64,000 bases of DNA from Phyllobacterium bourgognense. GTDB lineage: Bacteria > Pseudomonadota > Alphaproteobacteria > Rhizobiales > Rhizobiaceae. Below, one piece after another: positions 55,798 to 57,991 of the stretch. How positions within the stretch are numbered: position 1 is the stretch's first letter; each line of letters begins with the position of its first letter. The notes under the pieces were generated by a model. That model saw only the letters and a list, made by a program, of their open reading frames with translations, searched no databases and was not told the DNA's origin. Location: contig NZ_QPJM01000001.1 of the NCBI RefSeq assembly GCF_003337575.1, forward strand, positions 682,001 through 746,000, read 5' to 3'. A program made the translations under genes and the position numbers.

Positions 55798-56985
55798 GTG
55801 CGTTTCTCTGGATTGTTGCGGGCGTGTTCCCGGCTGAGAGCTCGAACAGATCGAAATATCATTGGTCCACTGGTCATCGGCGCGGCGATTTATCTGCTCT
55901 CCCCGACCGTCACCGCCTACCAGGATATGGCAAGCATGCTGTCGGGTTCTGAGTCCGGGCAAGGCCGCTGGACTTCCTATCTCGAAAAATCGCCCGCCGG
56001 CTCGATCCAGAAGGCCAACATGTCCTTCGTCGACGAAAAGGCGATCACGTCCAGCATTCCCGCCAGTGGTATCAATGCGCCCGGTATTGGCCCGATCGTC
56101 ATCAATGGCTCGCAAAAAGCACCTGGCGCGACGCCCGACGAAGATCGTATCAATCGCGCCGAAAAGCAGGGGCGCATCGTCACAATCTCTAAAAAAGCCC
56201 CGCCCAAGGCCTTCAGTGCAGGTTCTATCCTGCAGCGCCAAAGCATGCTGATTCGCCCGACCCATGGCGTTGAGGTCGAAATGGCTTTTGCCAAGCCGAA
56301 GATCGCCGGCAAGGAAATTCAGATCGCACTCGCGTTCCATAATCGCGCGCAGGAGAATCCAGAGCAGGACCTGCCGCCGATGCTGGCGAGCCTCGTCACC
56401 AACAATCAGCCGGACGTTCTCGCGCTCGGTTATGCGCCTGCAGCGCCGGATTATTCCAAGACATCTCCGTTCGACACGATCTTGAATGAGCCGAAGCTTT
56501 CCGGCCGCTTTATCCCGCAGCTCGGTGCCGGCGACCATGACTGGCTTGCGACCCCCTTGCCTCCAGTCGTTTTCACTAAAGAAGAACAAAAATGTCTGGC
56601 AACCGCCATTTATTTTGAAGCGAGGAGTGAAAGCGTCAAGGGCCAGGCGGCCGTGGCGCAGGTCATTCTCAATCGCGTGCGCAATCCGGCCTATCCAAAA
56701 ACCGTTTGCAAGGTCGTCTACCAGAACGATGACTGGATTAACCGCTGCCAGTTTTCCTTTGCCTGCGAGGGACGCAAACTCAATGTAACTGAGCCCAAGC
56801 AATGGAAAGTGGCGCAGGAAGTCGCTATGGCCGTCACATCGGGGCGGATTTTCCTGCCAGAGATTGGCTCGGCCACGCACTACCACGCAGTCTATGTCCG
56901 GGCGATGTGGGCGCATACGATGAAGCGCATCGACAGGATTGGCCAGCACATATTTTATCGCACCTACGGTGGCGGCTGGATTTGA
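55798..56985 (+). CDS. Cell wall hydrolase, SleB type
   Basis: A 395-residue protein with an N-terminal membrane anchor (IIGPLVIGAAIYLLS, near residue 22). A long Ala/Ser/Pro-rich region runs to about 260, and the C-terminal Hydrolase_2 (SleB) domain contains AIYFEARSESVKGQAAVAQV (quoted in part). Glu in FEAR is the expected catalytic residue. Cys pairs CKVV...CQFSFACEG are present. GTG at 55798 is preferred over TTG at 55771. Acts on peptidoglycan in the periplasm. Its last four codons are repeated 388 bases downstream in a duplication. Confidence 0.85.
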   Translation: MRFSGLLRACSRLRARTDRNIIGPLVIGAAIYLLSPTVTAYQDMASMLSGSESGQGRWTSYLEKSPAGSIQKANMSFVDEKAITSSIPASGINAPGIGPIVINGSQKAPGATPDEDRINRAEKQGRIVTISKKAPPKAFSAGSILQRQSMLIRPTHGVEVEMAFAKPKIAGKEIQIALAFHNRAQENPEQDLPPMLASLVTNNQPDVLALGYAPAAPDYSKTSPFDTILNEPKLSGRFIPQLGAGDHDWLATPLPPVVFTKEEQKCLATAIYFEARSESVKGQAAVAQVILNRVRNPAYPKTVCKVVYQNDDWINRCQFSFACEGRKLNVTEPKQWKVAQEVAMAVTSGRIFLPEIGSATHYHAVYVRAMWAHTMKRIDRIGQHIFYRTYGGGWI

Positions 56986-57325
56986 TCCTCGGGCGCTTGG
57001 AAACAACGGGAAAGCTGCTATATTCGTTCTGGAGTGGAGAACGAGCTTTCGCCCGTCCCCCGTTCCTGATTATGCGAAATGAACCCGGACGGTCCATGAC
57101 CAGCTCGTCCGGGTTTTTCTAACAATCAGTGCAATACTAAATGGCTTGTACCACATAGATTACCTCCAGATTTGAGGGCAGGGCCTTTGCCCAAAGGTCG
57201 AAGCGGCCATCCCTTCGATGCACCGGCTGGCTCGGTGCTTTCTGCTCTAGTCCTCAAATCGCATGATGCTGTCCGCTTTTCATTTATGGTTGGAATGATG
57301 CGACCCGCAAGAAACGCAGGGTTGA
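56974..57325. repeat. Tandem duplication, copy 1 (~350 bp)
   Basis: This copy runs from the last codons of the SleB-type gene (ggctggatttgat) through a promoter, hairpin and terminator to a second hairpin-rich block (cctccagatttgaggg ... cgcagggttga). The second copy lies 388 bases on. The two halves differ mainly in the middle. The block from 57163 onwards has nested hairpins such as gggcaaaggccctgccc and contains only short spurious frames. It occupies the 1-kb gap between the SleB-type gene and atpI. Confidence 0.85.
56997..57118 (+). ncRNA. Putative small RNA gene, twin copy 1
   Basis: TTGGAA (56997-57002) and TATATT (57019-57024) at 16-base spacing form a promoter. RNA would start near 57031 (ggagtgg). 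It has a hairpin gaacg...cgttc with the C-rich loop agctttcgcccgtcccc and ends in a Rho-independent terminator (acccggacg 57083-57091, cgtccgggt 57106-57114, T-run to 57118). About 88 nucleotides. The same gene is repeated downstream. No known Rfam family recognised. Confidence 0.65.
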
Positions 57326-57361
57326 GTGAATGCAATCGGTGAGTACGGATCATAGATGGCG

Positions 57362-57712
57362 GGCTGGATTTGATGTTCGGACGCTTGGAAACCACGGGAA
57401 AACTGCTATATTATTTCTGGAGTGGGGAACGAGCTTTCGCCCGTCCCCCGTTCCTTAGGTGAAGAATTGGACCCGGAGCGTGACTTGCCAGCCAGTCCGG
57501 GTCCTTTTCAACATAAGGGCGATGCTAAACGGAAATCTCCGCATAGTTCACCTCCAGATTTGAGGGCAGGGCCTTTGCCCAAAGGTCGAAGCGGCCATCC
57601 CTTCGATGCACCGGCTGGCTCGGTGCGTTCTGCTCTAACCCTCAAATCGCATGATGCTGTCCGCTTTCATTTACGGTTGGAACGATGCGACCCGCAAGAA
57701 ACGCAGGGTTGA
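57362..57712. repeat. Tandem duplication, copy 2 (~350 bp)
   Basis: Second copy of the block at 56974-57325, offset by about 388 bases, beginning with the same last codons of the SleB-type gene and ending with cgcagggttga. The region around 57440-57470 is the most diverged. After it, up to 57905, I see no gene. Confidence 0.85.
57385..57508 (+). ncRNA. Putative small RNA gene, twin copy 2
   Basis: Promoter TTGGAA (57385-57390), 16 bases, TATATT (57407-57412). The RNA would start near 57419 and end after the terminator ggacccgga (57469-57477) / tccgggtcc (57496-57504) with TTTT. The 5' hairpin and its C-rich loop are identical to copy 1. The linker and terminator loop differ, yet the terminator stem stays fully paired by compensating changes. 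Confidence 0.65.
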
Positions 57713-57905
57713 ACCAGACTGCGCGACATCTGAAATTTGTCGTGTTTCCCCACTTGATTGGGCTCCGTTCAAGTGCCCCACATCTGCACGATCCGCAGGG
57801 ATTCGACCGCAAAACTTCGATCAAGAGGTGAGACATATAGTCATATTTGGCTAACATATTGAATTTCACCACGAAAATTACCCTTGAGAGTCTCGGCTAT
57901 GCGCC

Positions 57906-57934
57906 TTGACTAGCGTGGACCGTAACAATATGTT
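57906..57934 (+). promoter_or_regulatory. Promoter of the F0 ATP synthase operon
   Basis: TTGACT (57906-57911), 17-base spacer, TATGTT (57929-57934). It stands about 50 bases before atpI and is the best sigma-70-type promoter in the region. Confidence 0.65.
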
Positions 57935-57991
57935 GCGCGCGACTTCGAAGCGGGGGTGAAGCCTCGCATTCAGCGTGTAAAGGACATGCCA

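What the first reader, a model, noticed from the sequence alone, without database searches (positions are those of the whole stretch)
56997..57508. Twin small-RNA genes with a compensating terminator stem
Seen directly: two units 388 bases apart, each with TTGGAA-N16-TATATT, an identical hairpin (gaacg...cgttc, loop agctttcgcccgtcccc) and a Rho-independent terminator. The terminator stems differ (acccggacg/cgtccgggt against ggacccgga/tccgggtcc) but both pair perfectly, and the linkers are diverged. Conservation of an unpaired C-rich loop plus covariation in the stem is what a selected RNA looks like. Rhizobia are known to carry multi-copy sRNAs with C-rich anti-Shine-Dalgarno loops (CuckooRNA/alpha-r14 kind); I cannot place this one in a family. 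Inference: paired trans-acting RNAs of about 90 nt just upstream of the F0 operon.
Basis: partly seen in the sequence, partly recalled or inferred. Interest (0 to 1): 0.7.

Follow-up and report, generated by a model that had tools for sequence, protein, structure and literature searches.

The report
Antisense-controlled small-protein gene, tandem copies
The two "small RNA genes" look like the antisense half of a many-copy genetic module of rhizobia and their relatives, in which an RNA on one strand overlaps and probably silences a gene for a 28-residue peptide on the other strand, an arrangement like the RNA-controlled toxin pairs of other bacteria.

Summary
The + strand features are real, but they are half of the story. 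On the MINUS strand each 388-bp unit encodes a conserved 28-29 residue peptide whose ORF runs through the "sRNA terminator". In mRNA order: a structured leader with a kissing-loop pseudoknot, Shine-Dalgarno (SD), ORF, 3' hairpin, anti-SD. The host genome (probably Phyllobacterium) has ten full copies and one truncated. The module is scattered through Hyphomicrobiales, often in tandem, and occurs on plasmids and phages. Leader and ORF go together (66 of 69 leader hits). Leader, antisense hairpin, ORF-embedded terminator stem and SD::anti-SD contact all covary. Searches of Rfam, Pfam, NCBIfam, PHROGs, PADLOC and PDB found no family for it. Best reading: a type I toxin-antitoxin-like module, its mRNA closed by a 5'-3' long-distance interaction as in hok and aapA and opposed by a cis-antisense RNA. 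Transcription, translation and toxicity are untested. The peptide is predicted to be a cationic amphipathic beta-hairpin, unlike the usual transmembrane-helix type I toxins.

The parts
56974..57325 (.). Unit 1 of the tandem duplication (repeat D1+D2)
57362..57712 (.). Unit 2 of the tandem duplication
56997..57024 (+). Promoter of antisense RNA, unit 1 (TTGGAA-N16-TATATT)
   Evidence: family consensus CTTGaAA-17-tgCTATATT
57031..57119 (+). Antisense RNA 1 (about 89 nt; start inferred from the -10 spacing, end from the U-run)
   Evidence: covarying 5' hairpin
57081..57116 (+). Intrinsic terminator stem of antisense RNA 1, embedded in the minus-strand ORF (U-run 57114-57118)
   Evidence: third-codon-position covariation
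57070..57156 (-). ORF 1: MWYKPFSIALIVRKTRTSWSWTVRVHFA, stop included
57162..57167 (-). Shine-Dalgarno GGAGGU of ORF 1
57031..57036 (-). Anti-SD CACUCC in the 3' UTR of mRNA 1
   Evidence: minimum-energy fold
57151..57266 (-). Leader RNA 1 (P1-P4 plus kissing loop), model R1 71.1 bits; R1 includes the SD and start codon
57385..57412 (+). Promoter of antisense RNA, unit 2
57419..57509 (+). Antisense RNA 2 (about 90 nt; ends inferred)
57455..57544 (-). ORF 2: MRRFPFSIALMLKRTRTGWQVTLRVQFFT, stop included
57550..57555 (-). Shine-Dalgarno GGAGGU of ORF 2
57419..57424 (-). Anti-SD CACUCC in the 3' UTR of mRNA 2
   Evidence: minimum-energy fold
57539..57654 (-). Leader RNA 2, model R1 68.9 bits

Best explanation
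A multi-copy, type I toxin-antitoxin-like module. Supported by sequence: the minus strand encodes a short mRNA with a pseudoknotted leader, an SD, a 28-29 codon ORF, a 3' hairpin and an anti-SD that pairs back to the SD over a long distance; the plus strand has a promoter, a structured ~90-nt RNA and a terminator lying inside the ORF. Inferred: the mRNA is made translationally inert by the 5'-3' closure, the antisense RNA duplexes with its 3' half and exposes it to RNase III (as RatA and SR4 do), and the peptide, predicted to be a cationic amphipathic beta-hairpin, is harmful or growth-modulating when the antisense RNA is lost or titrated. Tandem and dispersed copies, plasmid and phage carriage and degenerate copies fit toxin-antitoxin biology.
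For: ORF: P5, R16, W19 and R24 invariant in 39 aligned peptides; pN/pS 0.49 in 10 host copies and 0.57 in 53 units, with P5 in 52 of 53 at a free third position; second codon positions least variable in codons 2-12 (0.64 bits against 1.41 at third positions, 45 units). Leader: 26 sequences, 90.5% of cells paired, 19 of 25 pairs changed on both sides, 0 of 500 shuffles as good; in 79 distinct leaders not used to make the model, 95.3% paired, 21 of 25 pairs changed on both sides (3 of 500 shuffles), covariation score 0.543 against 0.220 (0 of 500), kissing loop 90.6%. G-U 54 against A-C 11 points to the mRNA strand. Linkage: 66 of 69 leader hits sit directly upstream of an ORF hit and 67 of 75 ORF hits have a leader. 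Antisense 5' hairpin: 8 of 8 pairs changed on both sides in 47 sequences, score 0.607 against 0.162 shuffled, 0 of 500. ORF stem: third positions of codons 16-23 and 15-24 form standard pairs, or C-A (G-U on the antisense strand), in 55 of 55 units. SD::anti-SD: flanking base paired in 86 of 115 distinct contexts against 55.0+-3.9 shuffled; duplex energy -9.95 against -8.38+-0.29 permuted in 35 diverse units, 0 of 5000; unprompted folds of both window mRNAs show the contact, z -6.73 and -6.87. Carriage: 46 of 72,556 plasmid records and 16 of 50,697 phage records at E<=10, of which 41 and 14 are at E<=0.1.
Against: No transcript, peptide or toxicity was tested. The peptide has no transmembrane helix (mean GRAVY 0.17; mean net charge +4.9). 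The mRNA promoter is only weakly conserved: 26 TANNNT occurrences at -13 to -10 from P1 in 125 regions, and a promoter model fitted to those regions gave no positional cluster. The 3' hairpin shows no strand preference (G-U 195, A-C 199). Leader loss with the antisense part kept (L131, L145, L150) against antisense loss with the leader kept (L147) is too few cases to show the asymmetry expected of a lethal toxin. Because the antisense RNA covers the anti-SD, pairing could in principle open the SD rather than silence it. Relatedness of sequences inflates shuffle-based significance, and the alignment was fitted to the structure (the kissing pairs were not part of that fit).
Confidence: 0.66

Rival explanations
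1. Antisense-regulated small regulatory or structural protein that is not a toxin: the same mRNA/antisense architecture tunes a beta-hairpin peptide that binds RNA, ribosomes or envelope.
For: No membrane helix; amphipathic cationic hairpin with a basic turn; strands 7-14 and 19-26 at mean pLDDT 77.7 but pTM 0.29; one unit (L147) has lost the antisense 5' part but keeps the leader.
Against: Many copies per genome, tandem arrays, patchy distribution (26 of 121 family genomes), plasmids, phages and decayed copies look like toxin-antitoxin modules rather than a housekeeping regulator.
Confidence: 0.22
2. One reading: paired trans-acting C-rich anti-SD sRNAs.
For: Promoter, hairpin and terminator on the + strand are real and conserved.
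Against: C-rich arm is paired and covaries as a stem; no Rfam match above cut-off; antisense overlap with a codon-conserved ORF and a co-inherited leader.
Confidence: 0.05
3. Leader is the main actor: a ligand-binding RNA (riboswitch-like) that gates a small peptide, the antisense RNA being secondary.
For: Compact four-helix fold with covarying kissing loop and strongly conserved unpaired motifs.
Against: In the family scan 66 of 69 leader hits precede this one ORF; of the other three, two read as broken ORFs and one lies about 190 nt from a weak ORF hit. No Rfam match above cut-off in the window or in 20 related loci.
Confidence: 0.07

Closest known systems
aapA/IsoA type I toxin-antitoxin (Helicobacter pylori; PMC6733600, passages seen)
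   Same: Small ORF mRNA whose SD is occluded by an anti-SD far downstream through a 5'-3' long-distance interaction; cis-overlapping antisense RNA; several chromosomal copies.
   Different: AapA1 is an amphipathic transmembrane helix (PMC8309996, passages); here a predicted beta-hairpin. Here the antisense RNA overlaps the 3' half of the ORF and the 3' UTR, and the leader is a pseudoknotted domain.
txpA/RatA and bsrG/SR4 (Bacillus subtilis; PMC8464778, passages seen)
   Same: Antisense RNA overlaps the 3' end of the toxin mRNA by ~120 nt; RNase III-dependent decay; SR4 also refolds the ribosome-binding site; location on prophage or skin element.
   Different: Those toxins have a transmembrane domain (38 and 59 aa). 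Here the antisense terminator lies inside the ORF and the partner mRNA has an upstream pseudoknotted leader.
Ibs/Sib and Ldr/Rdl tandem type I systems (recalled)
   Same: Tandem chromosomal copies of very short ORFs with antisense RNAs.
   Different: Hydrophobic peptides (recalled); no direct sequence comparison was made here.
alpha-r14 / CuckooRNA sRNAs
   Same: Multi-copy rhizobial RNAs of similar size.
   Different: No Rfam match above cut-off (whether Rfam holds these families was not checked), C-rich arm paired, antisense to an ORF.
BjrC68 (RF02353)
   Same: Weak match to one hairpin (16.9 bits).
   Different: 12 BjrC68-type loci (5 above the cut-off) hold neither leader nor ORF.

Membership tests
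Type I toxin-antitoxin system | Small protein gene under selection | tested here: met
   Conserved ORF, pN/pS 0.49-0.57, codon-position pattern; translation itself not shown
Type I toxin-antitoxin system | Protein is toxic when unrepressed | not testable with these tools
   No experiment; retention asymmetry inconclusive
Type I toxin-antitoxin system | Antitoxin is an RNA complementary to the toxin mRNA | tested here: inconclusive
   Promoter, covarying hairpin and terminator on the opposite strand overlap ORF and 3' UTR; transcription and repression not shown
Type I toxin-antitoxin system | Primary mRNA with occluded ribosome-binding site | tested here: met
   Covarying SD::anti-SD contact and minimum-energy folds; at sequence level only
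Type I toxin-antitoxin system | Toxin is a hydrophobic transmembrane helix (usual, not universal) | tested here: not met
   Alternating hydrophobic pattern, GRAVY 0.17, predicted beta-hairpin
alpha-r14 / CuckooRNA | Match to a described sRNA family | tested here: not met
   Rfam 15: 0 matches at cut-off in the window; only RsaE and BjrC68 up to E 5 in 56900-57960. Whether Rfam holds alpha-r14 was not checked
alpha-r14 / CuckooRNA | Unpaired C-rich anti-SD loop (feature recalled) | tested here: not met
   C-rich arm paired in the fold of copy 2 and in relatives
BjrC68 (RF02353) | Covariance-model score above 39 bits | tested here: not met
   16.9 bits

The most novel reading that the evidence does not exclude
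A new class of type I toxin-antitoxin module in Hyphomicrobiales and their plasmids and phages, whose toxin is an amphipathic beta-hairpin rather than a membrane helix, and whose toxin mRNA carries a dedicated pseudoknotted leader domain that senses a signal (ligand, ribosome or temperature) and sets when the long-distance SD lock opens.
Probability: 0.25. Interest if true: 0.9.

Novelty: new variant of a known kind. Interest (0 to 1): 0.7.

Why it matters
The literature searches made here listed no type I toxin-antitoxin family of Hyphomicrobiales. In the 46 plasmid records no listed gene lies under the ORF (45 "none", one record without annotation; PLSDB's gene table is incomplete). The module couples three overlapping constraints in about 90 bp: a protein code, a terminator on the opposite strand and a lock on translation. 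It offers a compact system for studying antisense control, and its presence on phages and plasmids suggests roles in plasmid maintenance or phage-host conflict in symbiotic and environmental bacteria.

Tried and rejected
Rfam at gathering and at E<=5: nothing above a cut-off. BjrC68 as a relative: rejected. Pfam, NCBIfam and PHROGs with four peptides, PADLOC with three, PDB with the profile: nothing up to E 1. A strand test on the ORF stem (A-C 68, G-U 16 on the mRNA strand) points to the antisense strand but is not relied on: most of those units were fetched by a pattern that fixes the stem letters, and V-to-I changes confound it. Leader-lost against antisense-lost counts: inconclusive; L156 and L207 (no leader hit, low promoter score) and L132 (leader hit of only 30.9 bits) were left out of that count as degenerate or unclear, and L133 because the locus ends there. 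In one search L183 looked antisense-less, but one search showed that a late stop had shifted my window and its hairpin is present. One search placed sites in 130 of 154 units and chose some wrong anti-SD sites inside the hairpin; one search repeated the test with better sites (148 of 154 placed, 140 distinct; a few still look misplaced). The unit list V (154) includes L145, whose reading frame holds a stop; it was dropped for hydropathy (153) but not for length and charge. In some searches units were aligned on the tryptophan, so its conservation there is by construction; one of 54 units (L059) has no tryptophan and was dropped. One search's note says 122 scored units; the rows give 121 (127 minus 6 truncated). 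One search stopped with an error after printing lengths and charge. Parts given to calls: 39 of 41 full-length peptides, 26 of 51 dereplicated leaders, chosen as easy to align (the independent count was added for that reason), 47 of 54 antisense regions, 30 of 68 peptides, 80 of 117 pattern loci.

Full report
Observation. The + strand features exist at the stated places: two promoters of the form TTGGAA-N16-TATATT (56997-57024, 57385-57412), each followed by a hairpin and a terminator. The repeat is a tandem duplication of a whole unit, 388 bp apart: 300 nt at 84% plus 48 nt at 96% identity.

The other strand. The host genome has 8 DNA matches to the unit, and a search with the block downstream of the "sRNA" found much the same places; aligning nine copies showed that block to be conserved. 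On the minus strand the copies read as SD, start codon and an ORF of 28-29 codons. Window copies: ORF 1 57070-57156, ORF 2 57455-57544. Profile search finds 11 ORF matches in the genome; ten have the leader and the eleventh (C17:17862) is truncated.

Distribution. Family sample: 26 of 121 genomes with the ORF at E<=0.01, one of them (G078) with an internal stop and no leader hit, and 27 of 121 with the leader. Order: 14 of 297, host included. Class: 2 of 289 for the ORF, the host genome and one weak hit with an internal stop, and 1 of 190 for the leader, the host genome. 111 of 117 hold an ORF hit and six do not. The leader is found in 71 of the first 80 and 34 of the other 37 loci. Phyllobacterium sp. 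KW56 has sleB at 90.5% identity beside two units, OV277 beside one, so the host genome is probably Phyllobacterium and copy number at this locus varies. Arrays of three or four units occur. Plasmids: 46 of 72,556 records at E<=10, 41 of them at E<=0.1. Phages: 16 of 50,697 at E<=10; two Myxococcus records (E 5) are chance-level, and of the other 14 two phages appear under two accessions each. Of the units I read from four phage-collection records and one S. meliloti plasmid, all five have ORF and antisense features and leader hits of 76.6 bits or more, except that the L120 unit read has an insertion in its leader (40.9 bits; a second L120 hit scores 91.7). A sixth locus, a Roseibium plasmid (L121), has lost the start and adjoining leader.

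Selection on the protein. Over 53 aligned units pN/pS is 0.57, and 0.49 within 10 host copies. Proline 5 is kept in 52 of 53, with all four codons in use. Tryptophan 19 is present in 53 of 54 units, but units were aligned on it. In codons 2-12 the mean entropy is 1.15, 0.64 and 1.41 bits at positions 1, 2 and 3 (45 units). Hydrophobic residues alternate at 6, 8, 10, 12 and 19, 21, 23, 25, 27 (0.95-1.00 of the tryptophan-anchored peptides among 153), and AlphaFold2 gives two strands (7-14, 19-26; mean pLDDT 77.7, pTM 0.29): a predicted amphipathic cationic beta-hairpin, not a membrane helix.

Selection on the RNAs. Leader: P1-P4 plus a P3-P4 loop-loop helix. In 26 sequences chosen as easy to align, 90.5% of 650 cells are paired, 19 of 25 pairs change on both sides, 0 of 500 shuffles are as good, and slid controls pair 36-49%. 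Independent count: 79 distinct leaders from the pattern-fetched loci, aligned with the model, give 95.3% of 1928 cells paired, 21 of 25 pairs changed on both sides (3 of 500 shuffles reach that), covariation score 0.543 against 0.220 (0 of 500), and 90.6% for the loop-loop helix, which was not part of the model. G-U exceeds A-C 54 to 11, which points to the mRNA strand. Antisense RNA: the eight pairs of the 5' hairpin all change on both sides in 47 sequences (11 of 500 shuffles reach that), 85.2% of cells paired, score 0.607 against 0.162 (0 of 500); the number of pair types does not exceed shuffles (120 of 500). The terminator stem inside the ORF covaries at third codon positions: pairs 16.3-23.3 and 15.3-24.3 are G-C/C-G in 31, C-G/C-G in 10, G-C/G-C in 7, G-C/C-A in 5, A-T/C-G in 1 and G-C/T-A in 1 (55 units not fetched by the pattern). 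The 3' hairpin shows no strand preference. The antisense promoter scores above the shuffled 95% level in 111 of 121 scored units of the pattern loci.

The lock. The mRNA 3' end carries CACUCC, complementary to the SD. The base before GGAG and the base after CUCC pair in 86 of 115 distinct contexts (shuffled 55.0+-3.9, 0 of 2000), and three flanking bases in 29 (shuffled 6.4+-2.3). With better site choice, own duplexes average -9.92 kcal/mol against -8.24 permuted (140 distinct contexts), and -9.95 against -8.38+-0.29 in 35 diverse units; 0 of 5000 permutations reach either. The minimum-energy folds of both window mRNAs, with ends chosen by me, contain this contact unprompted.

Reading. Passages of PMC6733600 state that an untranslatable primary transcript is a hallmark of type I toxin-antitoxin loci and describe a 5'-3' long-distance SD::anti-SD contact in aapA, likening its 3'-end activation to hok. 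Passages of PMC8464778 describe RatA and SR4, antisense to the 3' end of the toxin mRNA, acting through RNase III and, for SR4, refolding of the ribosome-binding site. Passages of PMC8309996 say most type I toxins are hydrophobic peptides with a predicted transmembrane helix, with RalR and SymE as cytosolic ones. The module here works like these in layout; its peptide differs, and toxicity is unknown. I therefore call it type I toxin-antitoxin-like and do not file it as a proven member.

Against. No transcription, translation or toxicity data. The mRNA promoter is weak in sequence: 26 TANNNT occurrences at -13 to -10 in 125 regions, and a fitted promoter model gave no positional cluster. Pairing of the antisense RNA with the anti-SD could in principle free the SD, so repression would need to come from duplex decay or from structure. 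Loss patterns are too few to judge: leader lost with antisense kept in L131, L145 and L150; antisense lost with leader kept in L147.

Literature. Searches (search listings, some capped at 20 rows) named no such family; others ("type I toxin" with Hyphomicrobiales; Phyllobacterium, small RNA, toxin-antitoxin) returned none. Passages of PMC10469942 and PMC10117765 found by my terms do not mention it. Most subscription papers are outside the library.

Noticed in passing
L121 1449-3084 (Roseibium aggregatum plasmid NZ_CP045620.1): A group II intron reverse transcriptase gene (ltrA, 1449-2927) ends just upstream of the ORF, which has lost its normal start and adjoining leader, while the antisense promoter and hairpin remain; an R1 leader hit lies at 979-1094, on the other side of ltrA, suggesting insertion into the module.
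   Followed up: partly
G000:C17:17862-17930 (locus L027): Host genome copy with only the C-terminal half of the ORF; the antisense hairpin region is still recognisable.
   Followed up: partly
L120 (phage-collection record MW462191.1): This 'Bacteriophage sp.' contig carries ETF-ubiquinone oxidoreductase, AMP nucleosidase and glutathione S-transferase genes and at least two units, so it may be a bacterial contig; one unit has a hairpin-rich insertion in the leader.
   Followed up: no
window 57308-57324 and 57695-57711, minus strand: CAACCCTGCGTTTCTTG upstream of each leader; several other host and Phyllobacterium-type copies have CAACCCTGCATTCGTTG or similar here, dyad-like, a possible operator for the mRNA promoter.
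   Followed up: no
L150 about 955-1110: Leader and N-terminal ORF replaced by a stretch with a long inverted repeat, like an insertion-element footprint, with the antisense part intact.
   Followed up: no
L130 (Alkalicaulis satelles NZ_VWOJ01000001.1): An intact-looking unit (leader 63.7 bits) in a genus that, from recall, lies outside Hyphomicrobiales, suggesting horizontal transfer.
   Followed up: no
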